A model generated the notes under the pieces. It did not search any database, was not told the DNA's origin, and saw only the letters and a list, made by a program, of their open reading frames with translations. A program made the translations under genes and the position numbers. Of a stretch of 34,053 bases of DNA, positions 17,001 to 33,430 are shown piece by piece. The DNA is from Sedimentisphaerales bacterium. Its GTDB lineage: Bacteria; Planctomycetota; Phycisphaerae; Sedimentisphaerales; Anaerohalosphaeraceae. Each line of letters starts with the position of its first letter. Within the stretch, counting starts at the first letter, position 1. The DNA is taken from positions 1 to 34,053 of the forward strand of contig JAFGQP010000285.1 of the NCBI GenBank assembly GCA_016935635.1, in the 5' to 3' direction.

Positions 17001-20000
17001 TATCAGGACCTTCACCGCGGCGAATCATGAATGCCCGCTGCGGAACATAGCGTGAGCCCTGACAATCGATCACGGTATTGGCAACTACGGCCGGATCGTT
17101 GGGATCTTCAGAGGTAATGATAATGCTCTTGCCCATCAGGTCCAGGCCGTCGCCTGTTTCAGTAACAATCGTGTAAGGCAGATTGGGCCGCGGCGCCAGA
17201 ATAACGGTATCGCCATCCCGTGCGGCTGCCAATGCGGCATTCACCGTCGGATAGTCTGTGGGGACCAGGCGATTGCGAGGCACGGCCAGTTCAAATTCAA
17301 CCTGAACCGTGCGATTGCCGCTCATGGTTATCGTATTCGTGTTGCCGGTCAAGGTATCATCGTCGGTTCCAATCCAGCGTTTGACGCGGTAATTATCGTT
17401 GGGTATAGCCGTCAGAAGGACAACCGTACCCTGTCTAATCATGGCTATATCCTGCGACTCGGACACAATCATCGATCCGGCAGGAGTCCATTCGGCTTTG
17501 AGGCTTCCATAAGGATCCCTGTCCGCAATGTAAACCGAGGCAGTCAGTACATAATCCCGCACGGTCAAGGCCGCATTCTGATGGTATCCCAGGTCCATGA
17601 TCCCCGTATCGGGCACATGGTCGCTGCGCGTGGTGCCGATATAACCAAAGGTGTCCGGATCCAGGAGGCTCAAGCTGGCCGGATCGCCCGTATTGACACA
17701 GGAACTGACCGCCCGCTGGCCGGACTCGATCTGGCTGAGATAATAGGTGACTTCAAGCGGGGAATCGGCATCGACCACACGAACAAACAGCGGATCATCC
17801 GCTTCGATATCGTCCCCGAAATTGCCGCCGAAATCCAGCCACAGAGGATCACCCGGGGCCTCATAGACCTCGGCGAATCCACCCATGAGATTGGAATAGG
17901 ACGAAATCAGAGTGACATAGGGATTGCCGACCTGGGCAGGATCACCCAGGGCAATCTGATTGCCGTAAGGTCCAAGGTTGTCCCAGACGATGGTATTAGT
18001 CAGCCAGACGACTGCATCAAAGCAGCCAATACCGCCGCCATAAGCATACAGACCTGTGGTAACATTGTCCGCGATGGTGCAATTGTACAGATTGACAAAG
18101 GCCGAATTGGCGGAAATGCCGCCGCCGCCGAATCTGGAACTATTGTCGTTAATCAGACAGTTGCGAACCATCTGATCCATATCCTCTTCGGGATTCAGAC
18201 CATAGCCTTCAATGAACAGCCCGGCACCAAAACCATCACTCCTATTATTGGTCATTCTGCAGGAACGAATCAGGAATGAACTGTCGAGGGCATAAATGCC
18301 CGCACCGTCACCGCTGATGCCGACCTGGCTGACATCGGTGGCGACGTTATTGAAAACCGTCACATTCTGAAGCAGAACATCGCTTTCATAGAGATACAAG
18401 CCGCCGCCGTTTTGAGCCTCATTTTCATGAACCAGACTGTCTTCATAGGTAAAAATCAGGCGTCCAATCGCGGCTCCTGCACCATAGGCACCCTCATTGC
18501 CGGAGAAATTGACATCCTTGAAATGAACCCAGGTCTGATCCGAAGGAACCATATTATAAGCATGCACACCGCCGCCGGCACTGACATGATAGGTGGTGTT
18601 GGTGACGGCAATGTTATCCTCGAAGTCAACGCCTTCGGCGTCCAGATAGCCGATGGTGGTGTTGGCGCCCTGAAGGGCATCCCACTCAAATTCCATCAGA
18701 TACCAGTCATAAAACCGGATTTCAGCCGGAGGAGTGAGAGGTACGGGCTGCCAAACCTGAATCGCTGCGATCTTAAGCTGATCACGGTTATCTTTAAGAT
18801 AACCCCAGATCACATCTTTAACCGTGGTATGGGCTGTCAGGTTGAATGCACTGTCAACCGTATAATAGCCCATCGTTCCCATCGGATTGCCTTCATTGTC
18901 CACCATAATGGACCAGGCCCGGAACAGGGACACGGAAGACATACCCTGAGATTGTGCTCCCAGCCAGAGAATACCCGCACCATCACCCACGCCGTCAAAA
19001 TCATTGCCTGGATCGCGATCCACGCCGACGGTATTTTCTGAGAACAAGCAGTCTCTCAGTGTAATCTGGCAGTTTGGCGCGCTGTACAGAGCGCCGCCAT
19101 CGAGAGCGGATGTATTACCAATAAATTGACAATCCTCATAAACTGCGACACAGGGAGTTTCTTTTTGAGTCAAAGGAACCGATTGGTAGTTTACAAGATG
19201 TTCAATCGCATTCGGTTCTTCAATGATATCGCCAATCACAAATTCTGCGCTGGCCAGGAAGTCACCGCCGGCATAATCCCAGAAGGACTCATTGTCCTGA
19301 ATAATCGTATTGGTCATCGTGATGTTGCAGCCATACTGATAGAAACTGGCGCCGCCGAGTGTTTGTGTGGTACGGAATGCACCCCCTGACGAGCCCTGGC
19401 TGCCCCGCGGATTGCCGCCGTCACCGCCGGTTGCACCACTGCCGCCATTGCCGCCAACCCCGCCGTCAACACCATCACCGCCATCGCCGCCGTCACCAAT
19501 AATCATACCATCGCCGCTATTGCCGCCGAAGCCGCCATGTCCGCCGCTGCCGCCCTGGGCACCGTCGCCATCTGCTCCGCCGCCATTGCCGCCGTCGCCG
19601 CCGCGATAGTCCTGAGATGTCAGAATCTCAGACCTCAGGATCGTATTGCCGGTGAATTCACAATCTTCAACAGTAATGGAGGATGTTGGACCATAATAGA
19701 TGCCGGCACCGTAGGCATAGAAGCCATCGGAACTGCCGTCACCGCCCCAGCCGCCAAAGCCGCCGTTACCCGGCACGCCTTCGCCTTCCTTACCGTCACC
19801 GCCATTGCCGCCGTTGCCGCCGAAGCTGCCGACACCGACTCGCAGTGAACACAGATTGATTGTGACATTTTTCAGTACAATAGTATTATTGCCATCGGTG
19901 TAAATAGCACCACCATAGGCATTTCCGCCAAAACCGGCATCACCGCCGGCGCCTCCATTACCCCCATAACCACCCTCTTCCAGATCATCAGCACCGGCAC

Positions 20001-22743
20001 CGTTGCCGCCATTGCCGCCGGCAGCGCCGTTGCCGCCCCAGGCCCGGCAATTTTCAAACAGGGTATTTGAAATGACAGGCGAACTGTTCGGATCGCAGTA
20101 TATCGCCCCGCCGCGCCCTTCACCGCCATGGCCGCCATCTCCGCCATCCTGACCGCTGGCGCCGTTATTCTGATTGGGACTTTGACCGTTGGCCCCGTTG
20201 CTTGCATTTTGACCGATCGCTGCACAATTCCTGAATACACAGTGATTGATTGTCGGACTGGCTCCGCCGGTACAAAGAATCGCACCGCCCAGAGCATCCG
20301 CGCCGCTTGCTCCCGGCATCGTGGGAGCACCAGAAGGATTATTCACCGCCATGGCATTGATGATGGTTAAACCGTCAATCACCATCGTATTATCGTGCCC
20401 CTCAACAAACTCAAACGCTCGTCTGGGAGCATGATCGCCGCCGCCGCCGTCCGAGGCCTGACAATCAATCACCGTGGCCGCTACAACAGTCGGATCCTCA
20501 GGATTTTTACTGCGAATCGTGATATTTTTACCTACTAATTTAAACTCTCCCGGATTGTCCGGGTCGGGAACCATGATAGACGGCGACAGATTGCGATTCG
20601 CATCAAAATGGTAGGTGCCGGGATGAATCACAATGACATCGCCATTATTGGCAGCACTGACAGCCTCACCAATGGTGGCATATGGGAACGGAACTTCCAG
20701 CGTGCGAGCCGGAGGCGCCAATAAGATTTTATTTTCTTCCGATGCCGCTGTCAGATTCTGGGCCGCCGATTTATCGCGAACCAGAACAACATAATGATAA
20801 TAGCTTCCGGGTGCGGCACTATTCAGGCCGGTCTTGACAAATGTCGTTGCGGACTGCCAGCTGCTGCTTAATGCGGATGGATCGGCTGCATAGAGCGGAT
20901 CGGTTGTACTGGTGCATTCAAATTTATACTCCACACCGCTTTCATCGTAATGCGTTGCGGCTTCCATTGCAATTGAAGTCGAGCTGATTTTGCGCGGTCT
21001 GGCCTCCCACCGGGCCGGGCTGGGCGCCGGAGGCAGGGTGTCTGAACCCACCGAGGTTGTCGCAGAACTCGACACAGACCATTCCGTTTCATTCCTATTA
21101 ATGGATTTATCGCGTACCTTGCATTGGAAACTCAGGGTTGCGCCCTGAGGAACACTGGTGCACTGATACAGCGGGCTGTCCTGCCAGGCTGTACTGTCAA
21201 ACGCGTCGTTTTCAATGCAATCAAAGAAATACTCAACACCGGATTTGTCGTCAGCTTCGAGCGCCCGCATCACGATATGCGACATGCCGGTCGCCACAGG
21301 GGCAATATCCCATTGGGCCGGATTGGGCATGGGAGCGGCCATATCACCACCGCTGATTTGCTCGATAGCCGCCTCGACATTGACCAATGGGCGGGTAATA
21401 TCCGGGGCTTCTGTATCCGTGGTCGGAATACCGGTTAATTTGAAAAGCTGAACGACTTCGTTCTGTGTCAGATAGCTCCCTGTTTTTTCAAGACTGGCCT
21501 GCTGCAGCACGGCAATCACACCCGAGACATAAGGCGTCGCACAGGAAGTCCCGGCAAAACAACTCATCCAGTTGCCGGCATCGTAGCCGTTTACACCCAC
21601 AATATCACTGGTGGTGGTGCAATTGGCCGGGGCAAATACATCCAGGAGAATGCCGGTATTGGAATAGGGCATCACCATACCAGCCGCATTAATACCTTCA
21701 CCTACACCAGCAGCATCGGATACGGCACCCACAGCAATGGTATTAGAACAGGCAGCAGGCAATCCGATACCATCTTTAAAATAGTCATTACCAGAGGCAA
21801 CCACAACAATCATTCCCGCCTCAACACAGTTTTTAGCAGCCTGAGCTTCCAGGGGGACCAATGCATCCGCAAGTGCCTCGTCATTGACCGGGTAAGAAAT
21901 GCCCCAGCTATTGCTGACCACCAGAATCGGATTGGCCGGATCGTCATACTTGTGCGAAACACACCAGTCCCACGATGCCGCACCGCCATCGTTGGTCAGG
22001 CCGCCGGTTGCATCATCAGAAAACTTCAATGCGTAAATCTTGGCGTCCGGGGCGGCACCGCCGATATAATCCCCGGCTTCGATATAACTGCCCGCGGCGA
22101 CACCGGAAACACTGGTTCCGTGAGCCTGAGCCGCTCCCGGAAGTACGGGGGCGGGATCATTATCCATATTGCCAAAATCATACCCGCCGATAATTTTGCT
22201 GTTGGGGAATCCGCCATTGCCCAGGGCCGGGTGGCTGTAATCCATCGCGTCATCGACAATGGCAACAGCGACTCCTTTGCCTGTGTATTTTGTGCGATAG
22301 GTCAAGCCTTTAATCAGGGCAAGCCCCTGCTTCATCTGCTTGTACACAGGGACAACCGGCTGAATATAGCGAACATTGTTATCAGCAATCAGTTTGTCCA
22401 GCCCGGCCTCAGCAATAAACCCTGAAAACGCAGCGATATTGTCGTATTTATATCGCAGGGTAAATTCGCTGGTCGTCAGCGTGGACAGGACCGCATTCTG
22501 CTTTGTCTTGATGGCCGACTGCAGCGTTGCAAGCGATGATTTGGAATTCCAGTCGGTCGTGCTGCGGACCGCCTCCGGCTCAAATAAGCCGACGATCACA
22601 CGAACCTGACTTTGCCCCGAGGCAAAGCCGCTCTGGATTTTTGCTGCATCGGTAAACTTGGACGACCCATAATTGACAGCCGTCGCGCTGGATACCATCA
22701 TCAGGCCAGCCAGCAATACACACCACACACTCATACGATTCAT
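11041..22743 (-). CDS. Giant secreted multidomain protein (about 3,900 aa): S8 subtilisin-like protease, FN3-like repeats, three parallel beta-helix supermodules, dockerin-like domain, FN3-like repeats
   Basis: Start MNRMSVWCVLLAGLMMVSSATA (signal peptide) with GGAGGG upstream; S8 motifs VAIVDDAMDYSHP, AHGTSVSGVAAG and FAGTSCATPYVSG; many GGAI/NCxFxxN beta-helix turns; dockerin-like DLVMNGQVGLDD...DFNYDSQVDFDD. Confidence 0.9.
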   Translation of the reverse strand: MNRMSVWCVLLAGLMMVSSATAVNYGSSKFTDAAKIQSGFASGQSQVRVIVGLFEPEAVRSTTDWNSKSSLATLQSAIKTKQNAVLSTLTTSEFTLRYKYDNIAAFSGFIAEAGLDKLIADNNVRYIQPVVPVYKQMKQGLALIKGLTYRTKYTGKGVAVAIVDDAMDYSHPALGNGGFPNSKIIGGYDFGNMDNDPAPVLPGAAQAHGTSVSGVAAGSYIEAGDYIGGAAPDAKIYALKFSDDATGGLTNDGGAASWDWCVSHKYDDPANPILVVSNSWGISYPVNDEALADALVPLEAQAAKNCVEAGMIVVVASGNDYFKDGIGLPAACSNTIAVGAVSDAAGVGEGINAAGMVMPYSNTGILLDVFAPANCTTTSDIVGVNGYDAGNWMSCFAGTSCATPYVSGVIAVLQQASLEKTGSYLTQNEVVQLFKLTGIPTTDTEAPDITRPLVNVEAAIEQISGGDMAAPMPNPAQWDIAPVATGMSHIVMRALEADDKSGVEYFFDCIENDAFDSTAWQDSPLYQCTSVPQGATLSFQCKVRDKSINRNETEWSVSSSATTSVGSDTLPPAPSPARWEARPRKISSTSIAMEAATHYDESGVEYKFECTSTTDPLYAADPSALSSSWQSATTFVKTGLNSAAPGSYYHYVVLVRDKSAAQNLTAASEENKILLAPPARTLEVPFPYATIGEAVSAANNGDVIVIHPGTYHFDANRNLSPSIMVPDPDNPGEFKLVGKNITIRSKNPEDPTVVAATVIDCQASDGGGGDHAPRRAFEFVEGHDNTMVIDGLTIINAMAVNNPSGAPTMPGASGADALGGAILCTGGASPTINHCVFRNCAAIGQNASNGANGQSPNQNNGASGQDGGDGGHGGEGRGGAIYCDPNSSPVISNTLFENCRAWGGNGAAGGNGGNGAGADDLEEGGYGGNGGAGGDAGFGGNAYGGAIYTDGNNTIVLKNVTINLCSLRVGVGSFGGNGGNGGDGKEGEGVPGNGGFGGWGGDGSSDGFYAYGAGIYYGPTSSITVEDCEFTGNTILRSEILTSQDYRGGDGGNGGGADGDGAQGGSGGHGGFGGNSGDGMIIGDGGDGGDGVDGGVGGNGGSGATGGDGGNPRGSQGSSGGAFRTTQTLGGASFYQYGCNITMTNTIIQDNESFWDYAGGDFLASAEFVIGDIIEEPNAIEHLVNYQSVPLTQKETPCVAVYEDCQFIGNTSALDGGALYSAPNCQITLRDCLFSENTVGVDRDPGNDFDGVGDGAGILWLGAQSQGMSSVSLFRAWSIMVDNEGNPMGTMGYYTVDSAFNLTAHTTVKDVIWGYLKDNRDQLKIAAIQVWQPVPLTPPAEIRFYDWYLMEFEWDALQGANTTIGYLDAEGVDFEDNIAVTNTTYHVSAGGGVHAYNMVPSDQTWVHFKDVNFSGNEGAYGAGAAIGRLIFTYEDSLVHENEAQNGGGLYLYESDVLLQNVTVFNNVATDVSQVGISGDGAGIYALDSSFLIRSCRMTNNRSDGFGAGLFIEGYGLNPEEDMDQMVRNCLINDNSSRFGGGGISANSAFVNLYNCTIADNVTTGLYAYGGGIGCFDAVVWLTNTIVWDNLGPYGNQIALGDPAQVGNPYVTLISSYSNLMGGFAEVYEAPGDPLWLDFGGNFGDDIEADDPLFVRVVDADSPLEVTYYLSQIESGQRAVSSCVNTGDPASLSLLDPDTFGYIGTTRSDHVPDTGIMDLGYHQNAALTVRDYVLTASVYIADRDPYGSLKAEWTPAGSMIVSESQDIAMIRQGTVVLLTAIPNDNYRVKRWIGTDDDTLTGNTNTITMSGNRTVQVEFELAVPRNRLVPTDYPTVNAALAAARDGDTVILAPRPNLPYTIVTETGDGLDLMGKSIIITSEDPNDPAVVANTVIDCQGSRYVPQRAFMIRRGEGPDTIIQGLTIRNALWIGELGQNAVIPNPPMPDDPTINPPPPPRANSGEDAIGDGFGGAILIDNGSSPIIRNCVFYNCQVVAAWGGDGANGRTPAEGSNEDGQSGGHGGIGQGNGYGGAIAILDKSSPLIQNCIFTENRALGGCGGIGGNGSNADGSGRESWGGDGGYGIGDGIGGAIYAEEQCDAVITNCVFDDNYARQGIPGTGGAKGSGAEYPDPYNPSTPGSNGFAVSYGMIRGGAITLGKGATSSVIDCVFDGNKAFESDYLNTVYIIGEQEVTQTSEEYQFLTRGGAITVDPNSTIENFSNLIIKNSGGCALDIGSGTQIYVKDCVFENNYDWERTFLDFYLEPEQVLQLYEQYYPEALTISAGAVFINEDCQNVIFENCTFNKNYSKSYGGAINAKSDFTAINCSFGANEAQANGGAIDMYYYIPDPNTYTLEMTLTGCTFADNKAGNWGGAIHTQNFEAAFNQCYFINNTAWSGGAMHLSEGSIQVGNSLFSGNSATGLSYFHRAVSGEGFGGALACLNTSATIVDTVFVENRAESGQGQGGAIALVSGNAIIKHQLDNCLLADNYAKLTGGAVAMTNGVSPSFNNCTIVGNTTDGQGGGLFISNSSQATLTNSILSGNGSFAVYEQPSSADAKVNNCLFYGNPNGDYFNAQTASALTVPQLNAIAGNAANLAANPLFAVGVLGDYYLNPSSPAINAGNGTALSFGLNTYTTNTSISPAVLDGGIVDLGYHYYNAANANIMPRFTLTAYVQDNRGVVTPSSQIYYMGQKATLTADIQSDYIITGWSGGTVNDGSDEAVNHVMMTSNKTITVLVRQKQTYLVGGSSPFTEVQQAIDVAQDGDTIMVMPGRYNPGVGTSGDYDASLVTISLNGKKLKITGSNPADEEVVRATAFENYEFSLINTPEEAIIEGITLRSGQMYIIAGSPTIRNMIFEECRWTGGNPTKTLNCGGGVVDGADGGSVLGGAVTILESSPKFIHCSFENNSVQGGNGQNGAGGCEAHPTGGDGGWPGRAYGGAVYAGFSSNVIFDHCTFTGNEALGGTGGNGGVGATIGGTQYHGGRGGGMIWPDSIENSYDSFGSWWDGWEEGDKYYFYSSMFGTYDYDVWARWFGWTKWKNWEEFLASEDYANAMTTTPKPDGYEEYWRYSGYGGAVYCAYDTTAKFVGCVFADNATDGSLSGIGDEIEPTPNRQLDLPTAGGAVFALQDCALEFTDCQFNNNTADRTTVELPLTFNTSFGGAIAYENACNVVFTRCDFNNNEAAVGGGLYAYKSQTTVADCNSFDNYAYAGSGIYAEYDTIEITNTRFVRNEAVTPPANVIPGEGENDPPVIYETLAAAGQGGGLFVGNAELKLSHSVFTTNLADISGGGIYLAGEDPVDSSIFNCLFDNNVGRRDGGGASVNWFVTSNFANCTFANNKSTGRGGDYSDPGSGGGLYCAYGSNVNILDSIFWDNTAADGIQITVGTGFIYDPRPATLSISYSDVQGGNTVSSVRVASGSTLNWGVGNINADPGFQVHPDGLGNYYLNQTGPCISTGSVPAGSIGLETYTTNILGGLDKGIVDMGYHYPLQQGTSTCVMTDLVMNGQVGLDDLAILVQYWMFGCSDINTWCGGSDFNYDSQVDFDDMSILSRCWLEADNEAPIAPAWALIDPILAPFNTYNQLVLTGQPTRDNWFPENQLQYRFLCIDPVDGPDSGWLTDPAYVVTGLTFGRQYKFQYQVLDPMDNISIAAVELTGIPGTQYFPQPDPLNPVPNPIMLWDVPPAAMDETRITMTALEITDPENLGLEYEFQRYVGDVAIGSPAATFKVQNIDPGSTGLNTFYSATPWVFTDTGLITGQIYTYRVRCRYGNTLNTWTQLSIEASATPQVVDNEPPLPNPAVLTSATKVNVNGIWYHLVVAQEADDDSDVEYQFECVVGNSLDGNNAIWRNADNVADMPNNPNGTAPTPNVIWVQVDSQFAGYQYRVRYRDRSPLQNTGQWSEPLQAQ
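12087..12267 (-). other. Dockerin-like EF-hand domain inside the giant CDS
   Basis: MTDLVMNGQVGLDDLAILVQYWMFGCSDINTWCGGSDFNYDSQVDFDDMSILSRCWLEAD; second loop fits DxNxDxxVxxxD, first loop is degenerate. Confidence 0.75.
12290..14545 (-). other. Beta-helix supermodule 3 inside the giant CDS
   Basis: Starts QTYLVGGSSPFTEVQQAIDVAQDGDTIMVMPGRY; ends KGIVDMGYHYPLQQ. Confidence 0.7.
14550..17280 (-). other. Beta-helix supermodule 2 plus InlB-like repeat inside the giant CDS
   Basis: Starts NRLVPTDYPTVNAALAAARDGDTVILAP; ends DLGYHYYNAANAN...KATLTADIQSDYIITGWSGGT. Confidence 0.7.
17281..20717 (-). other. Beta-helix supermodule 1 plus InlB-like repeat inside the giant CDS
   Basis: Starts ARTLEVPFPYATIGEAVSAANNGDVIVIHPGTY; ends DLGYHQNA...VVLLTAIPNDNYRVKRWIGTDD...VQVEFELA; Gly-rich loops. 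Confidence 0.7.
21480..22298 (-). other. Subtilisin-like (S8) peptidase domain inside the giant CDS
   Basis: Asp (VAIVDDAMDYSHP), His (AHGTSVSG) and Ser (GTSCATPYVSG) catalytic motifs in the canonical order. Confidence 0.88.
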
Positions 22744-23244
22744 GACACCCTCCATACGGAAATAAGTCCTGATTCTCATATTCGCCTTTCCGATCACATT
22801 CCAAAAAACACAAGACGTCCCTGCCTGAACAGGCGCTGTCAGGGATTATCGATTGTCTCTTAGAATCGGAAAAAGTCCCCATTGAGATTAAGCGGAAATT
22901 AGCAGAAACACGCTGAAAAGTCAAGAAGAATATAGAGTTACAACTCTCGATAGCCTATAAATATCCGATATTATAGGACGTTTTTGTTTCGTTCTATTTA
23001 CATCATTTCTGGACCCCCAAATGACCAATAACTATTTCGTTCCCACTATTAGTAACTGATTTGCTAATCCCATTTCAAATAAAATCTGATTTTTTTGAAA
23101 ATTTTTAGATTTTTCTTCACTTTTTTTCAAAATTTGATATACCCTTCACGATTTTATTTGTCTTACCGCAGAATCCGGCCGAGTAATCATGAAGCAAACC
23201 CCGGAATTATGAGGCATTAAAGACAGAGTTAAACTGGAAATAAT

Positions 23245-24531
23245 GTGCATATAAATGCTCTAAAATCAAGGCTTTCAGGCAAGGTCGCAATACCTGCCTC
23301 CAAATCCCACACCATTCGGTCTGTGGCGATTGCCGCTTTGGCAGATGGACAGAGCATCATTCGCAATCCTCTTTATTCTCACGATACCCTGTCTTGTGTG
23401 AGCACATATCGTTCTCTGGGAGCGACTATCGATACAACTGATCCTCTACAATGGATTGTTCAGGGAATCTGCGGAGAAATCAGCTTCAAGAATACGACTA
23501 TTGATGTCGGAAACTCTGGAACCACCCTTGCCATTGCGCTGGGTTCCGCAAGCCTTGCTGATCCCAATAAAGAAGTGATTTTTACAGGCGACTACCAGAT
23601 ACAAAACCGACCAGTTGGTTCTCTTTGCAGAGCATTAACTCAGCTTGGAGCAAGCTGTATCGCCGTGAAAAACAATGATTGTGCGCCAGTTCAGGTCAAA
23701 GGGCAGCTTTCCGGCGGCAAAGTCAGTATTCATTGCCCAACCAGTCAATATCTCAGCAGTCTGCTACTGGCATGTCCGCTTGCTGATGGGGATACCGAAA
23801 TCGAAGTACCCCTGCTGTACGAACCTGACTACGCTAAAATGACTCTGGATTGGCTTGATAAACAAGGCATCCGCTATTCGCGTCAGGAAATGGCACATTT
23901 TTCTATTTCTGGACACCAAAAATACACCTCTTTTAACTTACCGGTCGCCGCTGATTTTTCCAGTGCAACCTTTTTTCTATGTGCCGGGGCACTGCTGGCC
24001 GATGAACTGACTCTGACAGGTCTGGATTTTTCCGACAGCCAGCCGGATAAAGCGGTGGTGGATTATTTACAGCAAATGGGTGCAGAGATCACCATCAGCA
24101 CCGAGGGCGTCCGCATACATCAATCGTCTCTGAGAGGAGTTGATATCGATATGAACCGGACTCCAGACGCCCTGCCGGCCATGGCCGTGACGGCGGCTTT
24201 TGCATCCGGAACAACGCGTTTGCTCAATGTCCCGCAGGCCCGTAACAAGGAAACTGACCGCATCGCCTGTATGGCCAAAGAGTTAACAAAATTGGGTGCA
24301 GACATCGAAGAATTACCCGATGGCATGGTGATTCGCGGCGGCAAGAGGCTGCATCCTGCCTCCCTGCATGGCTATGATGACCATCGGATTGTCATGGCCT
24401 GTGCCATCGCCGGGATGTGCCTTGAAGACGGCCCATTGACTGTCGATACTGCCGAAGCCGCCGGCGTCACATTTCCCGATTTTGTCCCGCTGATGAACAG
24501 CATCGGCGCTAAGATTACCCTGTCTAAGTAA
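23245..24531 (+). CDS. aroA: 3-phosphoshikimate 1-carboxyvinyltransferase (EPSP synthase)-like protein, GTG start
   Basis: PASKSHTIRSVAIAALADG, VGNSGTTLAIA, NRPVGSLCRAL, PTSQYLSSLLLACPLA, DMNRTPDALPAMAVTAAFA, ARNKETDRI, YDDHRIVMACAIAG. Confidence 0.88.
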   Translation: MHINALKSRLSGKVAIPASKSHTIRSVAIAALADGQSIIRNPLYSHDTLSCVSTYRSLGATIDTTDPLQWIVQGICGEISFKNTTIDVGNSGTTLAIALGSASLADPNKEVIFTGDYQIQNRPVGSLCRALTQLGASCIAVKNNDCAPVQVKGQLSGGKVSIHCPTSQYLSSLLLACPLADGDTEIEVPLLYEPDYAKMTLDWLDKQGIRYSRQEMAHFSISGHQKYTSFNLPVAADFSSATFFLCAGALLADELTLTGLDFSDSQPDKAVVDYLQQMGAEITISTEGVRIHQSSLRGVDIDMNRTPDALPAMAVTAAFASGTTRLLNVPQARNKETDRIACMAKELTKLGADIEELPDGMVIRGGKRLHPASLHGYDDHRIVMACAIAGMCLEDGPLTVDTAEAAGVTFPDFVPLMNSIGAKITLSK

Positions 24532-24609
24532 AATAATGAACCATTTATGGAGTTTATCCGTACACTTTCACTGCGCGTACCGAGATAAGAAAGGTTAAGG
24601 AATCCAATC

Positions 24610-26376
24610 ATGAATCAAAAACGATTTGAAATCGAAGGCCGCCAAATAATCCTTCATACCCCCGGTTCCATTTGTACCACCGCCGGTGAATTGCTTCATA
24701 GTGAGATCTTTGCCAAGGTAGTCCATTTATACTGCAAAACGCTTCAAAAGCAGGACTCTCCGGCATGGACTCTTTTTTCGAGTTTGCTGGGACAGGATTG
24801 TTCAGCCAATATTATCGCCCTGCTGATTCAGCTTGCCGATATTTCACTGGCCGATTTGTCGGAAAACCAGCCGGAACTGAAACCATTACTGGACCGACCC
24901 AATCGTCTTCGACTTCACGAATTTGTCGAAGGGCTGTATGACTTCTGGCGCTCGTTTGACCGGTTTATGATTCTGCATTCCGAACCCGGCAAGAGCAGTT
25001 TTGAACGTCGCCCCTATCGATCATTTAACGTCACCGTGGAAACGTTGACGCATATTATTCGGGGCACTTATCGCGATATCTGTGAAAATATTACCGGTGA
25101 TCACCCGCGTATCTATCGCCAGGTTTCAGCCGGCTGCGATATCGGTCTGATTGCCGTACCGCGTTTGACCACCCTGCCAGACAAATATGCCGCGTCCCTG
25201 AATCAGATTCCTTTCATTCGTCAGGTCTGGATTGCACCGCCGATGATTATCGACCCTCCGATGAACAAACGTACGGGTGAATTTAAAAAAGTAGAACAGA
25301 ATCCGATTGATGGATTGACGCTGGATGCAGCCAACTGGATATGCTACCCTGCCCAGGTTGGCCCCATGGTCATTTTTGTTTATTTCCATCAGCGCATGAT
25401 TGATTTGGGATGCGCGCTGTCGAACCTGTTTGAGCTGGCTACCGATGAACAAATCGCCAAAGGCCCTGATGCAATTTATTTATTCGGCACTGATCCGGAA
25501 TTCATGAAACAATATGGAACAATGCCGACCGTCTTTCATGAGGACCATCAGCACAATCTTCTGGTAGCGGCAGTTCCCTGTGAACCGCAGTACGGTTACT
25601 TCGGATACCTTAAAAAGATGGTGCTGACGCTTCACAATATCGCCATGATGAAAAAAGGCCGGATGCCCTATCACGGGGCCATGGTGCGCATCACCCTGAA
25701 AAACGGCAAATCGGCCAATATCGTTTTGATCGGCGACACCGCGACCGGCAAATCCGAATCGCTGGAAGCATTTCGGCATATCGGAAAAGAATTCATCCGC
25801 GAACTGCGCATCATTGCCGATGACATGGGTTCCTTTGAAGTTGATCCCGAAGGCATCATTCGCGGTTATGGCACTGAAATCGGTGCGTTTGTCCGGCTTG
25901 ACGATCTCCAGGCCGGATATGCCTTTGAACAAATCGACCGCGCCATCATCATGAGCCCTCAGAAGATTAATGCCCGCGTCGTGCTGCCTGTCACCAACCT
26001 GGACGAGGTGCTGCACGGATATGCGGTGGACTATATCTTATATGCCAACAATTATGAACAAGTCGACCAGGAACATCCCGTTCTTGAACAATTTGACAGT
26101 CCGCAAAAAGCCATTCAGACATTCCGGGAGGGTGCCAGCATGAGCAAAGGCACAACCACCTCTTCAGGTCTGGTCCACAATTATTATGCCAATATTTTTG
26201 GCCCTCCGCAGTATAAATCGCTTCACGACAAACTGGCTAACGAGCTGTTCCAGACAGCCTATGCCAGAGGATTATTTATCGGACAGATGCGAACCCGGCT
26301 GGGTATCGACGGCTATGAATCCTCGGGTCCGCAAGAAGCGGCCAGGGCCCTGTTTGAACAAATTTCAAAGAAGTAA
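24610..26376 (+). CDS. PEPCK(ATP)/HprK-superfamily P-loop protein of unclear function
   Basis: Walker A-like IGDTATGKSESLEAF; acidic motif IADDMGSFEVDPEG; PEPCK-like INARVVLPV and SMSKGTTTSSGLVHNYYANIFGPP regions. Confidence 0.6.
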   Translation: MNQKRFEIEGRQIILHTPGSICTTAGELLHSEIFAKVVHLYCKTLQKQDSPAWTLFSSLLGQDCSANIIALLIQLADISLADLSENQPELKPLLDRPNRLRLHEFVEGLYDFWRSFDRFMILHSEPGKSSFERRPYRSFNVTVETLTHIIRGTYRDICENITGDHPRIYRQVSAGCDIGLIAVPRLTTLPDKYAASLNQIPFIRQVWIAPPMIIDPPMNKRTGEFKKVEQNPIDGLTLDAANWICYPAQVGPMVIFVYFHQRMIDLGCALSNLFELATDEQIAKGPDAIYLFGTDPEFMKQYGTMPTVFHEDHQHNLLVAAVPCEPQYGYFGYLKKMVLTLHNIAMMKKGRMPYHGAMVRITLKNGKSANIVLIGDTATGKSESLEAFRHIGKEFIRELRIIADDMGSFEVDPEGIIRGYGTEIGAFVRLDDLQAGYAFEQIDRAIIMSPQKINARVVLPVTNLDEVLHGYAVDYILYANNYEQVDQEHPVLEQFDSPQKAIQTFREGASMSKGTTTSSGLVHNYYANIFGPPQYKSLHDKLANELFQTAYARGLFIGQMRTRLGIDGYESSGPQEAARALFEQISKK

Positions 26377-26459
26377 GACAAACAGGTCTTCACAAGATAG
26401 CTCTTTTCGGGTATAAGAATGATTCTTTATATAGAAACCTTTTTCTTTGGAGGCCAGCT

Positions 26460-27788
26460 ATGATTGGTTGTCATACAGGACGATTTTTTCAGGTTACCGT
26501 CGCAGGAGGTTCGTACCAGGAAGGCCTGACCGCCGTGGTCCAGGGGGCTCCCCCGGCGATGAGCCTGTCCGAACAGGAACTGTATGGGGATTTATTACTG
26601 CGAAAACCCGGAACGGATGAATTATCCAGCCCGCGAAAAGAGCCGGATTTGCCGGTGATTTATACCGGGCTGAATGCAGCCGACACCATTGAGAACGCCG
26701 GCAACAAAAATTTAACCAACGGGACACCTATTTCGATTTTGATTCCCAATCTGGATCGGCATTTTATTCACATCAAGCAATACCAGGACACCAACCGCAC
26801 CCCGCGGCCGGGTCATGCGTCATGGGCCTCGTTCTGCAAATACGGCCCCTGCGATGATGCTATTGGTGCGGGCATTTTCAGCGGACGATATACCTCCACA
26901 ATTGTCGCGGCAGGCTGTGTCGCCAAAAAGATTCTGAAAAAATTCGGCATCAACGTCTTTTCCTATATCCGCGAAGCCGCCGGTGTCTGCTGTCCGGATA
27001 TAGACCACAAAACAATTTTTGACTACACCGAACGCTACAAACAGATGCGGCGGGATCTGGATCCGTTTTACCAGGAAATTTATATCAAAGGCCTGGTGAC
27101 CATGGAGATGCGGTTCCTGGAAAAAATGAAAGTCTTTGCCCAGATCGAACAGGCCATTGATGATATCCGGGCCAAGGCCCCCCTGATTTCGGCCGATGAA
27201 ATTCGCTCCAAATACGGCGTTCATCATGTCATTCTCAGTCCCGACCCGGAAATCGCTGAAGCCATGCTGCAGGCGTGCAATAAAATCAGCCGCAGCGGGG
27301 ATTCTTCCGGCGGTGTTGTCGAAGTGGTGGTAACGGGGGTTCCGGTCGGTCTGGGTGAACCGGTATTTGATAAGCTGGATGCGCAGCTGGGACAAATGCT
27401 GGGTATCGGGGCAGTCAAGGGCCTTGAAATCGGCGCCGGTTTTGCCGTCAAGGACATGACTGGAATTCAGTCCAACGATGCCATGCAGGCCCAGCAGGGT
27501 CAGGTGCAATTCATGACCAATAATGCCGGCGGCATCACCGGAGGACTTTCCAGCGGACAGGACATTATTGTTCGCCTGGCCGTCAAGCCGACTCCCACAA
27601 TCGATAAAGCACAGCAGACCATTGATAAATATACCCTCCAGAATACCCAATTGGCGGCGATTACACGACGCGACCCTACCATTGTCAGCCGCATCTGGCC
27701 GGTCGCGGAAAATTATACCGCAATGGTTATGCTGGACAATCTGATTGCCTGGATGGGATACGAACAACTCAAGGCACGATTTGCCTGA
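26460..27788 (+). CDS. Divergent chorismate synthase-like (AroC-fold) protein
   Basis: Clear AroC core: RKPGTDELSSPRKEPDLPVIYTGL, RPGHA, VAAGCVAKKIL, GVPVGLGEPVFDKLDAQLGQML, GAVKGLEIGAGF, NNAGGITGGLSSGQDIIVRLAVKPT, RRDPTIVSRIWPVAE; canonical GESHG and GGGRSSARET motifs are not present. Confidence 0.75.
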   Translation: MIGCHTGRFFQVTVAGGSYQEGLTAVVQGAPPAMSLSEQELYGDLLLRKPGTDELSSPRKEPDLPVIYTGLNAADTIENAGNKNLTNGTPISILIPNLDRHFIHIKQYQDTNRTPRPGHASWASFCKYGPCDDAIGAGIFSGRYTSTIVAAGCVAKKILKKFGINVFSYIREAAGVCCPDIDHKTIFDYTERYKQMRRDLDPFYQEIYIKGLVTMEMRFLEKMKVFAQIEQAIDDIRAKAPLISADEIRSKYGVHHVILSPDPEIAEAMLQACNKISRSGDSSGGVVEVVVTGVPVGLGEPVFDKLDAQLGQMLGIGAVKGLEIGAGFAVKDMTGIQSNDAMQAQQGQVQFMTNNAGGITGGLSSGQDIIVRLAVKPTPTIDKAQQTIDKYTLQNTQLAAITRRDPTIVSRIWPVAENYTAMVMLDNLIAWMGYEQLKARFA

Positions 27789-27821: not shown

Positions 27822-27857
27822 AAAAAAGGGACGCATTTGACGGCGTCCCTTTTTTTA
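27822..27857. terminator. Bidirectional rho-independent terminator between convergent genes
   Basis: AAAAAAGGGACGC ... GCGTCCCTTTTTTT. Confidence 0.9.
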
Positions 27858-27883: not shown

Positions 27884-30800
27884 CTATCTGCCCATCGCAG
27901 CAATGGCATCTTCTTCCGCTTCATCCTGGAGCACAATGGTCGGCTTGACCAGAATCAGCAGGATGCGTTTATCCTGGACTTCGCTGCGGTTCGAGAAGAA
28001 ACGGGATATCACCGGAATCTTGCTGAGAATCGGAACCCCGGCTTCTCGTTCAACCTGAGCGGTTAGAGTCAAGCCTCCCAGGAATACGGTACCGCGATCC
28101 GGAATAGATACGCGGGTCTGAATCGATGAAACCTGTTCGGTAGGATACGATATTTCAACCCTGACTTCTTCGCCGGATGTGGGATTGAAGCCAAGCGTCT
28201 GCTCAACCTTATTATCCGTCAGATCCAGAGTGAAGGTCGTGACACGCAAGATCACGTATTTCATATCCGACGTGATGGTTGGTGTAATCGACAGACGTAT
28301 GCCGGAATCAAAATCTTCGTAGGTGTTTTCAATATAAGCATTCGTGATCGGCTGACCATCAGCAGGAGTAATCGTCTCCGTGCCGAGGGTTGCATCGGTA
28401 CGAAGCCGGCGTACCGTGGTGACCTGCAGGGTGGCGGATTCGCCGCTGAGCACCATCGCTTTGGGAGCGGTTAACTGACGTGAATTACTGTGCATCTGTG
28501 TGGCACGCAGCAGGAAATCCACCTGTAAATCATCCAATACATAGGCAAAACCGGAAGACATTGAAGGAGTGGATCCGCCCAGCGTACCGCCAACGGCCGT
28601 CGGCTGAGACGCCGCCGCATTGTAGCTATTCTGTGTAAACATCAGATTACCTGGGCCGGCATCGCTTTCCCACTGCCCGCCGACGCGCAACCGATTAATC
28701 TGGACATCCAAACCGATATCTTCGAGGAAATGCTCATCAACCAGCAGAAAACGCGCTTCAATGGCAACCTGCTGCCCAAGCTGTTTTCTCATTTCATCAA
28801 GGAATTTACGTATCTTTTCATGATTTTCCGGTGTCTGCCAGACAATCAGCTTGGTGCCCATGAACTGCTCAATACGAGCCTCACCGCCATTGTCATACCA
28901 GCTGTCCGGATCGATGGTCTGCAGAATGGTATCAATCAGCTGATCGCCCATTTCACGAGAACGCCAGCTTCCAAGATACTGACTGCTGCTGCCGCTGCTG
29001 CGACGGTTGCCGCGGTTCTGACCGCCGCTGGAACCGCCCTGGCCGCCCTGCTGTCCACCCTGATTACCCTGACTTTGTCCCATCACGTTATCGCTTTGGC
29101 CTACTCCCTGAACACCGCCGTTGTATTCATCATAATCCGCCGGCGGACTCAGTAATTCCGCAACATCATAAACAATATTGGTAAACGGCTTGGGCAGATA
29201 ATCCACCGTTGCAATCGTAACGATGCCGTACTGCACCACATATCCGAGTTCGGCCATACCGCCTGCACTGACCGCCTGAAGAACACGCTCCAGACCAACT
29301 CGCAGGGGAACCGCTACAAGCCCTTCACCGCTCAAGGTGATAGGAGTATCTCGGTCAATGAAGGCATTTTCAGTCAAATCTTTCCACATCACTGCAATCG
29401 ACAACTGAGGTTCAACCGAATCTCTGAGAATATTGATTGCTTCTTCAAACGTCGTTTCCGGAGTCAACGCGGACAAATTCACCGTTTGATCCAGCAGTTT
29501 GTTGGCCGCAGCATCGGCCGGACTCATCTGTTCCTGAAGTAGCTGCTCGCGACGCTCGGATATTTCTTTCCAGTTGCGGGGATAATTAATTTCCTTGGAG
29601 AAAGGCGTGGATTTTCCGCTGGTTTCCAGAATCAGCTGCATCTCTTCCTTTTCAGCCTCATGCTTGATGCGAAGCTGTTCGACCCACCGAACGGTATTTT
29701 CCAGCGTTTTTCGCTTGATCAGGGCTTCCCGATTGTGGGGATCAACAGCCAGCAGCTGTTCCAATTGCCCCAGCGCCTCCTCGTAGCGTTCCTCCGCTTC
29801 GAAAGCAAGAGCTCGTTCCATGTAATCACTGACGGCCTGGGCACGTTCGGTTTCAAGATTCTTGCGGATTTCCTGATTGATCCGTTCGGCCTCGCTGCCC
29901 TTGATGATAATCTGCTCTTCGTTGTATTTCTTTTCTTCCGTGTCAACGACTTCTTCTTTTTCAGTCAGCTTTTTCTTGAGGTCGCCATATTCATCACCCA
30001 GCAGCAGCCGGTTGTGTTCCAGCGTCGAAAAGGCATTTCGCAAAGCGGTTCTGGCGGCAGTGAAATCTTGTTTTGCTTTCGCCTGATCCGCTTTGTTCAG
30101 GGCATCCGTAACGACCGCCCGGGTGTAGCTTCGCTGAACTTCCTGCTTACGGATCACTTCCTGCAGGTAGGAATTGGCCTGACTGGCCGTGGGAGTTTCG
30201 GCGGCAGGCTGTTCGGCAGCTGTTTGCGTCACGTCGATCGCAACGGGAGCCGCCACGACTTCTTGAACAGTCTGAACCGCAGTCGGCTGTTCAACCGTGA
30301 CTTCCACCACCTCTACAGTCACCGGCGCGGCTTCGACCTGAACCGGTGTTGCTTCTTCAGCCTGAACCTCGACCACTTCCACCGTAACCGTAGCCGCTTG
30401 AACCTCGGCCTGGATTGCAGCGGGCTGTTCTGCCGGAACTTCAACCACTTCAACGGCAACCGGGGTCTCAACAACCTCGACCACTTCAACGACAGGCTGC
30501 TGGACAGGTTCGGCCGGAGGGGTCTGCTGACTTAAAGAGGCATTGACCTTGTTCAGGTCGGCAGTGATAATGCTCTTTTCCATTTCATTGACATAAGGAC
30601 TGGCCTGAATCTGCAGCAGGAGCTTTTTGGCCTCAGTATAATTCCCATCAGCGATAAGCTGGTCAATTTGCTTTCTGAGGGTAACAATCTTTTCGCGTTC
30701 AGCTAAAGCGGTTTGAATCTGCCCGGCAAGCTCTTTGGCTTTCTGCTTCTGGGTGTCGGTCAAAAAGGAGCCGTATTCCTGCTCCACCACAGCAAGGTCG

Positions 30801-31006
30801 CCCTGGGCCTTGGTGTACATGCCCCGTTTAATCCATTCTTCCACGACCTTAAGAGAGCTGTCGGCCTTTTGCTGCTTGGCTTCCTGCTCGGAAGCCGGAG
30901 TATCTGCCGCCCGTATGGTGCCTGTGGTCCAGACAAACGCCAACACGGCAAATAGAAGTGCAAGTGTACCGGCTCGACGTACCCAAATAAATGATTGCGT
31001 ACTCAC
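27884..31006 (-). CDS. Secretin (type II/IV pilus GspD/PilQ-like) with N-terminal TPR-like region and Val/Glu repeat linker
   Basis: C-terminal VSIPDRGTVFLGGLTLTAQVEREAGVPILSKIPVISRFFSNRSEVQDKRILLILVKPTIV is a secretin signature; N-terminal signal peptide. Confidence 0.88.
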   Translation of the reverse strand: MSTQSFIWVRRAGTLALLFAVLAFVWTTGTIRAADTPASEQEAKQQKADSSLKVVEEWIKRGMYTKAQGDLAVVEQEYGSFLTDTQKQKAKELAGQIQTALAEREKIVTLRKQIDQLIADGNYTEAKKLLLQIQASPYVNEMEKSIITADLNKVNASLSQQTPPAEPVQQPVVEVVEVVETPVAVEVVEVPAEQPAAIQAEVQAATVTVEVVEVQAEEATPVQVEAAPVTVEVVEVTVEQPTAVQTVQEVVAAPVAIDVTQTAAEQPAAETPTASQANSYLQEVIRKQEVQRSYTRAVVTDALNKADQAKAKQDFTAARTALRNAFSTLEHNRLLLGDEYGDLKKKLTEKEEVVDTEEKKYNEEQIIIKGSEAERINQEIRKNLETERAQAVSDYMERALAFEAEERYEEALGQLEQLLAVDPHNREALIKRKTLENTVRWVEQLRIKHEAEKEEMQLILETSGKSTPFSKEINYPRNWKEISERREQLLQEQMSPADAAANKLLDQTVNLSALTPETTFEEAINILRDSVEPQLSIAVMWKDLTENAFIDRDTPITLSGEGLVAVPLRVGLERVLQAVSAGGMAELGYVVQYGIVTIATVDYLPKPFTNIVYDVAELLSPPADYDEYNGGVQGVGQSDNVMGQSQGNQGGQQGGQGGSSGGQNRGNRRSSGSSSQYLGSWRSREMGDQLIDTILQTIDPDSWYDNGGEARIEQFMGTKLIVWQTPENHEKIRKFLDEMRKQLGQQVAIEARFLLVDEHFLEDIGLDVQINRLRVGGQWESDAGPGNLMFTQNSYNAAASQPTAVGGTLGGSTPSMSSGFAYVLDDLQVDFLLRATQMHSNSRQLTAPKAMVLSGESATLQVTTVRRLRTDATLGTETITPADGQPITNAYIENTYEDFDSGIRLSITPTITSDMKYVILRVTTFTLDLTDNKVEQTLGFNPTSGEEVRVEISYPTEQVSSIQTRVSIPDRGTVFLGGLTLTAQVEREAGVPILSKIPVISRFFSNRSEVQDKRILLILVKPTIVLQDEAEEDAIAAMGR
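30250..30510 (-). repeat. Tandem protein-level repeat (V[TA]VEVVEV...EQPTAVQ, about 22-26 aa units) in the secretin linker
   Basis: VAVEVVEVPAEQPAAIQAEVQAAT / VTVEVVEVQAEEATPVQVEAAP / VTVEVVEVTVEQPTAVQTVQEVVAAP. Confidence 0.75.
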
Positions 31007-32235: not shown

Positions 32236-32269
32236 GGCCTTATAAGTGATGAACTTATGAGGCTTTTTT
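32236..32269 (+). terminator. Rho-independent terminator downstream of tRNA-Lys
   Basis: GCCTTATAAGT-GATGA-ACTTATGAGGC-TTTTTT. Confidence 0.8.
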
Positions 32270-33430
32270 GTTTGTGTCAACTGCTTCATTCTTGGGTTTT
32301 TCTTGACTTTCCGTCACTTTTTCCGTCACGACAGGCTTTGTCCAGAATGATTCTTTTGTTGCCTTGTCATAATCACTGTCGGACACTTGGGTATAGAATG
32401 TCTGGGTCGTGGTGATGGAAGCATGACCAGCATATTCTTTGACCACGTGCATCGGGTATCGTGAGGCCCAATCGGTGATACAGCTTTTCCGGAGTGAGTG
32501 TATCGGCTTGTCAAAAGGCTTCAGACCGGCCCGTTTCAGGATTGCCAGAAAATCACGATGTAAATTACCTTCATATACATCCGTGATAACCTTCTCTTGT
32601 CCCTCTGGAGCCGCCGCATACGCAGCCAGTAACATCTTGGCCAGTTCCGGCGGTATCGGAATAACTCTCTTGTCACCGTCCTTGGGCATCCACTCATCGC
32701 AGGCTATTATGGTCAGACGGTTCTTGTCCCAATCGATATTCGACCACCGGAGATTAAGAGCCTCACCGCTGCGAAGGCCGCACATCCTACACAAAGCAAT
32801 GACCAGCTTTAACCGCTGGGGTGCGTGTTCCATAATCTTATTGAACTCGTCCAGCTCGACAGGGTGCCATTCTTTAGGTGCCTCTGTATCCATCACCACG
32901 TGAGCGAAGGGATTGACCGTCAGCAGGTCTTTTTCGACTGCCCAATTAAAGATCGCCTTGGCCATAACCAGAATGCTGTTGACGGTGTTCTTGGCGAGCT
33001 TTTCTTTGCGTTTTTTCTCTACCCGAAGGCGATTCGATAGTAAGGCGGTCTTGAACTTGCCAGCATCTACCTTAGATATGCTGTCAATACGTCGGTTCTG
33101 GCCAAAGTGCTTTAACAGATACGTTTGACATTCTTTCCGCTTCAAGACCGTCCCGGGCCTCAGTTCAAGTCCCTTTTCTTCAAGATAATCCTGACACAAC
33201 TGGCTTGTGGTGAGAGCTTTTCCAGTGTTCCTCTTGGATGGGTTCTTGTCGAACGCAAGCTCAATCTCTGATGTACGTTTCTTGGCATCACGTTCCGACA
33301 GTTCATCGACCCTGCCAAGAGCCTTACTGCGCCGCTTGCCGTTCTCGTCGAACCACCGGCAGCACCAGTATTCGACAATCCCGTTCTTGCCTTGCTTGCG
33401 GTCTTTATAAAGTGTTACCGCTCGTCTCAT
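32255..33430 (-). CDS. Tyrosine recombinase / phage-type integrase
   Basis: Catalytic motifs GLRSGEALNLRW, HSLRKSCITDW, GHASITTTQTFYTQV; located at the 3' side of tRNA-Lys. Confidence 0.92.
   Translation of the reverse strand: MRRAVTLYKDRKQGKNGIVEYWCCRWFDENGKRRSKALGRVDELSERDAKKRTSEIELAFDKNPSKRNTGKALTTSQLCQDYLEEKGLELRPGTVLKRKECQTYLLKHFGQNRRIDSISKVDAGKFKTALLSNRLRVEKKRKEKLAKNTVNSILVMAKAIFNWAVEKDLLTVNPFAHVVMDTEAPKEWHPVELDEFNKIMEHAPQRLKLVIALCRMCGLRSGEALNLRWSNIDWDKNRLTIIACDEWMPKDGDKRVIPIPPELAKMLLAAYAAAPEGQEKVITDVYEGNLHRDFLAILKRAGLKPFDKPIHSLRKSCITDWASRYPMHVVKEYAGHASITTTQTFYTQVSDSDYDKATKESFWTKPVVTEKVTESQEKPKNEAVDTNKKAS

What the first reader, a model, noticed from the sequence alone, without database searches (positions are those of the whole stretch)
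23245..27788. Three-gene cassette: AroA-like, PEPCK/HprK-like P-loop protein, catalytically divergent AroC-like protein
Seen: three co-directional genes with short gaps (78 and 83 nt) closing at a strong terminator. Known: AroA consumes PEP plus shikimate-3-phosphate, AroC acts on the AroA product, and PEPCK-family enzymes handle PEP/oxaloacetate. Inference: a PEPCK-like protein placed between homologues of consecutive shikimate steps, with the AroC homologue lacking canonical active-site motifs, suggests either a strongly diverged chorismate branch or a repurposed enolpyruvyl-transfer pathway making another product.
Basis: partly seen in the sequence, partly recalled or inferred. Interest (0 to 1): 0.62.

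Follow-up and report, generated by a model that had tools for sequence, protein, structure and literature searches.

The report
Divergent chorismate synthase replacing AroKC
Three neighbouring planctomycete genes encode an ordinary EPSP synthase, an unrelated and sporadic PEPCK-like protein, and an unusual but almost certainly working chorismate synthase that serves as the only one in many related bacteria, so this is a variant of the known pathway to aromatic amino acids and not a pathway to a new product.

Summary
The three genes, gaps and terminator are as described. Gene 1 is a normal aroA and the only one in the genome. Gene 3 ("AroC2") is a divergent chorismate synthase. The genome also holds a canonical shikimate kinase-chorismate synthase fusion (AroKC) on another contig. 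AroC2 forms one long-stemmed clade, found in 32 of 150 genomes of the class and in other classes of the phylum. In 23 genomes at least 90% complete it is the only chorismate synthase, although all carry chorismate-using enzymes. In one genus it sits exactly where sister species carry AroKC. It keeps the five EPSP-binding arginines and the flavin-side His and Asp named in the literature; it changes the phosphate-side catalytic His to Tyr, has lost or altered further motif residues, and carries a 70-residue insert. So it most likely makes chorismate. The middle gene is a distant PEPCK-fold protein with catalytic residues intact. It is sporadic (3 of 150 genomes), inverted in one relative, and replaced by AroKC, by a pectate lyase or by nothing in others; it is not a conserved part of the cassette. 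A repurposed enolpyruvyl pathway is not supported. A side observation stays open: 15 of the 23 AroC2-only genomes lack any recognisable shikimate kinase.

The parts
23245..24531 (+). aroA, EPSP synthase (428 aa), the only one in the genome; S3P/PEP site residues conserved as in relatives
24610..26376 (+). PEPCK-like P-loop protein (588 aa); K335/K336, H355, K381, D404/D405, R456 align with the PEPCK catalytic residues; sporadic, probably horizontally acquired gene
26460..27788 (+). AroC2, divergent chorismate synthase (442 aa): Y19 for catalytic His, H119 and D405 kept, Arg48/116/143/403/411 kept, helical insert about residues 176-255
27822..27855 (+). intrinsic-terminator-like hairpin closing the three-gene run (convergent with the secretin gene 27884-31006 -)

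Best explanation
Genes 1 and 3 are the last two steps of ordinary chorismate synthesis. AroA makes EPSP from shikimate-3-phosphate and PEP, and AroC2 turns EPSP into chorismate with reduced FMN. AroC2 is a subfamily of chorismate synthase found here in Planctomycetota, in which the phosphate-side histidine is a tyrosine (inferred to assist the leaving phosphate in its place), while the EPSP-binding arginines and the flavin-side His and Asp are kept. It has displaced the canonical AroKC fusion in many lineages; in this genome both coexist. The PEPCK-like gene between them is an incidental passenger, probably an active nucleotide-dependent phosphotransferase of unknown substrate. Shown: distribution, sole-copy status, in-situ replacement, residue conservation. 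Inferred: the catalytic activity itself, and the role of Tyr.
For: The chorismate synthase HMM finds exactly one copy, AroC2, in 23 genomes at least 90% complete, and all of them carry anthranilate/aminodeoxychorismate synthase-type chorismate users. G146, read to about 80%, also has AroB, an AroD-AroE fusion and chorismate mutase-prephenate dehydratase. In genus g3, G087 has AroC2 exactly where G042/G049 have AroKC, with the flanking PLP-enzyme and PFOR genes about 93% identical. G110 carries aroA-AroKC-AroC2 in tandem. aroA lies directly beside aroC2 on the same strand in at least 8 genomes without the middle gene. All five EPSP-contacting arginines, including the two at the 3-phosphate, map to invariant AroC2 residues (residues from PMC11633415). 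His (proton to flavin N1) and Asp (primes N5; 300-600-fold loss when mutated) are kept. AroC2 is one clade with 100% SH-aLRT. hhalign against E. coli AroC gives E 2.7e-53.
Against: An otherwise near-invariant catalytic His is replaced by Tyr, and the GRSS Arg is lost. The stem branch is long (2.1 changes per site). Six genomes, this one included, keep a canonical enzyme as well, which would allow a second function there. 15 of 23 AroC2-only genomes lack a recognisable shikimate kinase, so the source of the substrate's phosphate is unexplained. No activity has been measured.
Confidence: 0.82

Rival explanations
1. AroC2 has been neofunctionalised: it takes EPSP (or a relative) to another product, and the PEPCK-like protein and AroA feed that branch.
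For: The catalytic His is changed and a canonical AroKC is also present in this genome. G086 has a separate aroA-aroC2-aroK module besides another AroA and AroC.
Against: AroC2 is the only chorismate synthase in 23 near-complete genomes that use chorismate. It replaces AroKC at the same site. The EPSP pocket is kept. The PEPCK-like gene is not conserved.
Confidence: 0.08
2. The PEPCK-like protein is a replacement shikimate kinase or another pathway enzyme working with aroA and aroC2.
For: It lies between aroA and aroC2 in this genome, in UBA7708 and in G093. It keeps phosphotransfer residues. Shikimate kinase is missing in many AroC2 genomes.
Against: All three class genomes that carry it have a recognisable shikimate kinase (G000, G093, G009), and the kinase-less genomes do not carry it. 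In other phyla it lies beside unrelated genes.
Confidence: 0.04
3. AroC2 here is a degenerate or inactive paralogue.
For: Its motifs have diverged and a canonical AroKC is present.
Against: 69-79% identity across most families of the class with 80% mean column identity, intact ORFs, and sole copy in many genomes.
Confidence: 0.04

Closest known systems
Chorismate synthase (AroC, EC 4.2.3.5; PF01264, TIGR00033)
   Same: Fold, FMN/EPSP-binding arginines, flavin-side His and Asp, position next to aroA
   Different: Catalytic His to Tyr, GRSSxRET to GIFSGRYT, HDP to RDP, about 70-residue helical insert, long separate clade
Planctomycete AroKC fusion (shikimate kinase-chorismate synthase)
   Same: Shares the C-terminal chorismate synthase domain; found at the same locus in sister species
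   Different: AroC2 lacks the kinase domain and is not derived from the AroKC of the same genomes
EPSP synthase (AroA, TIGR01356)
   Same: Gene 1 is a member
   Different: Thr for Ser169 and Glu for Ser197, as in its AroKC-bearing relatives
Phosphoenolpyruvate carboxykinase (PF01293, NF006821)
   Same: Predicted fold of gene 2; Lys-Lys, His, P-loop Lys, Asp-Asp and Asn-x-Arg align
   Different: Sequence far below family cut-offs; own family with no Pfam entry; substrate unknown
HPr kinase (PF07475, TIGR00679)
   Same: GKSE P-loop
   Different: Only weak matches in a minority of members

Membership tests
Chorismate synthase | Passes the curated HMM (TIGR00033 212 bits; PF01264) | tested here: met
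   305 and 308 bits; the stricter NF003793 narrowly missed, 313.5 against 321
Chorismate synthase | EPSP-binding arginines (R46, R103, R129, R354, R362 of P. brasiliensis) | tested here: met
   Map to invariant R48, R116, R143, R403, R411 (residue list)
Chorismate synthase | Flavin-side His and Asp | tested here: met
   H119 and D405 invariant
Chorismate synthase | Phosphate-side His17 | tested here: not met
   Invariant Tyr19 instead; the G007 enzyme, sister to AroC2, also has Tyr
Chorismate synthase | Converts EPSP to chorismate | not testable with these tools
   Inferred from sole-copy genomes with chorismate users
EPSP synthase AroA | TIGR01356 cut-off and S3P/PEP residues | tested here: met
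   385.8 bits; K22, R124, S170, Q171, D313, K340, E341, R344, R386 kept (which residues matter is from memory of the E. coli structure)
PEPCK (ATP) | Family HMM cut-off | tested here: not met
   17.5 against 369 bits; PF01293 only 0.024 at best
PEPCK (ATP) | Fold and catalytic residues | tested here: inconclusive
   Foldseek 1.4e-12 but TM only about 0.4; residues align in a weak hhalign (E 0.0033, probability 9.7)
Conserved three-gene cassette | Middle gene conserved beside aroA/aroC2 in relatives | tested here: not met
   3 of 150 genomes; inverted in G093; unlinked in G009

The most novel reading that the evidence does not exclude
In the AroC2 lineages without a shikimate kinase, the end of the shikimate pathway uses a differently activated substrate. 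AroC2 (His to Tyr at the phosphate) and, in one family, an AroA with Asp in place of the phosphate-binding Ser169 would work on a shikimate that does not carry the usual 3-phosphate.
Probability: 0.05. Interest if true: 0.85.

Novelty: new variant of a known kind. Interest (0 to 1): 0.4.

Why it matters
If AroC2 is active, it shows that the supposedly invariant phosphate-side histidine of chorismate synthase can be a tyrosine in an enzyme on which cells depend. That is a natural experiment on a debated flavin mechanism. It also shows displacement of a bifunctional AroKC by a single-function enzyme at the same locus. The same genomes expose a missing-enzyme problem: most AroC2-only lineages have no recognisable shikimate kinase of either known type.

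Tried and rejected
(1) Middle gene as a conserved pathway member: rejected on distribution and synteny. (2) Middle gene as a shikimate kinase substitute: rejected, because the carriers have a kinase and the kinase-less genomes lack it. (3) Archaeal GHMP shikimate kinase filling the gap: none over the cut-off; the best G146 hit is IspE by reading. (4) Weak shikimate kinase hits in G146: these are a cytidylate kinase-acyltransferase fusion, by reading. (5) Loss of phosphate binding in AroC2: at first suspected, then weakened when the two phosphate-contacting arginines proved conserved. (6) PADLOC, PHROGs, PDB sequence and Rfam searches of the genes or region found nothing useful for gene 2 or the gaps. 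(7) Literature searches found no paper on this subfamily or on a shikimate kinase gap in Planctomycetota, within the open library only. (8) The rest of the G146 genome could not be fetched.

Full report
Observation. The three co-directional ORFs, the gaps of 78 and 83 nt and the closing hairpin are real. The window lies on contig C280 of a 3.8 Mb, 87.6% complete genome bin. Its closest named relative at this locus is Phycisphaerales bacterium UBA7708 (92% identity in gene 2, same order of the three genes), so I place it in the Phycisphaerae.

Gene 1 is EPSP synthase. It passes the aroA equivalog cut-off and is the only aroA in the genome; the other hit is a 25% identical second member of the enolpyruvyltransferase family. 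Against E. coli AroA the substrate residues are kept, except Thr for Ser169 and Glu for Ser197. Both changes are shared with relatives that use a canonical AroKC.

Gene 3 (AroC2) is a chorismate synthase by HMM, profile comparison and predicted fold (model mean pLDDT 78). The genome holds a second enzyme, an AroK-AroC fusion on contig C126. An alignment of 33 AroC2 and 13 canonical sequences shows that AroC2 has Tyr19 for the phosphate-side histidine (GESHG to GGSYQ), GIFSGRYT for GRSSARET, RRDP for RHDP and an insert of about 70 residues. However, the five arginines that bind EPSP in the fungal enzyme, two of them at the 3-phosphate (docking study, PMC11633415), correspond to invariant residues 48, 116, 143, 403 and 411. 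The histidine that protonates flavin N1 and the aspartate that primes N5 (PMC3509576) are H119 and D405, also invariant. The mapping of published numbers onto this alignment is mine.

Distribution. In 150 genomes of the class, 32 carry AroC2. Searching with the family HMM, 23 genomes at least 90% complete have AroC2 as the only chorismate synthase, and every one has PF00425 chorismate-using enzymes. AroC2 also occurs in other classes of the phylum (14 of 392 sampled genomes of the phylum, four of them from the class already sampled). Presence outside the phylum was not tested. All AroC2 sequences form one clade on a long stem (SH-aLRT 100). The nearest relative is the G007 enzyme, which already has the Tyr, although long branches make that join less certain.

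Replacement in place. In genus g3, species G042 and G049 carry AroKC between a secretin gene and a PLP-enzyme/PFOR pair, and species G087 carries AroC2 at exactly that spot, with the PLP and PFOR flanks about 93% identical. G110 carries aroA-AroKC-AroC2 in a row. The simplest reading is that AroC2 took over the AroKC function.

The middle gene. It encodes a 588-residue member of an unnamed family found in Phycisphaerae, Deltaproteobacteria-type bins, Armatimonadota and others. Its predicted fold matches PEPCK (E 1.4e-12, TM about 0.4), and a weak profile alignment places its invariant K335-K336, H355, K381, D404-D405 and R456 on the PEPCK catalytic residues (the PEPCK residue roles are from memory). 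It occurs in only 3 of 150 genomes of the class. It is inverted between aroA and aroC2 in G093, and it lies 44 kb from aroA in G009. Elsewhere aroA and aroC2 are direct neighbours (G128, G146, G105, G134, G099, G086, G043, G147) or are separated by AroKC (G110) or a pectate lyase (G116). It is therefore most simply read as an incidental insertion. Whether the whole genome holds another PEPCK was not tested.

Open side observation. PF01202 shikimate kinase is not found in 15 of the 23 AroC2-only genomes, nor in G007, and no archaeal-type shikimate kinase passes its cut-off in any of these. The HMM scan misses some controls at its default threshold, so a divergent kinase is possible. In G146, about 80% of which I read, the rest of the pathway is present: AroB, an AroD-AroE fusion, AroA, AroC2 and chorismate mutase-prephenate dehydratase. 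The apparent kinase hits there are cytidylate kinase and IspE (the naming of these two and of AroD-AroE is by reading the sequence). In family f14, whose sampled AroC2-only genomes lack the kinase, AroA has Asp for Ser169 and Trp for Tyr200. A non-orthologous shikimate kinase is the likeliest answer. I did not test whether canonical-AroC genomes of the class lack the kinase as often, so a link to AroC2 is not shown.

Verdict. A divergent but probably working chorismate synthase beside a normal aroA, with a passenger gene between them. New variant of a known kind; moderate interest.

Noticed in passing
genomes G099, G081, G116, G134, G140, G146, G005, G043, G057, G064, G070, G076, G100, G141, G147: No recognisable shikimate kinase of either known type, although AroA, AroC2 and chorismate users are present; a missing-enzyme case.
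   Followed up: partly
L162, L164, L166, L168, L149, L173 (family f14 AroA): AroA has Asp for the phosphate-binding Ser169 and Trp for Tyr200; all planctomycete AroA sampled but one (G086b, Ser) have Glu for Ser197.
   Followed up: partly
L082:6575-7738 (G007): A chorismate synthase with GESYG (His to Tyr) but canonical RSSGRE: an intermediate between canonical enzymes and AroC2.
   Followed up: partly
L085 (G086): aroA-aroC2-aroK module in a genome that also has a separate AroA and AroC elsewhere.
   Followed up: no
G146 contig C7:10501-13440 (locus L181): A gene resembling archaeal-type ADTH synthase (by eye), then an HMGL-like aldolase (by eye), then aroB; possibly a different entry into the pathway.
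   Followed up: no
window 24610-26376 and loci L008, L010-L019, L054, L071: The PEPCK-like family has no Pfam entry and an unknown substrate; in L012 it sits next to PurE and carbonic anhydrase, in L010 and L012 near MpsC.
   Followed up: partly
window 11041-22797 -: A 3918-aa ORF that looks by eye like a subtilisin domain followed by long repeat regions; related ORFs flank aroA/aroC2 in several relatives.
   Followed up: no
window 32255-33430 -: Phage-type integrase gene 4.5 kb from the cassette; no link to the passenger gene was tested.
   Followed up: no
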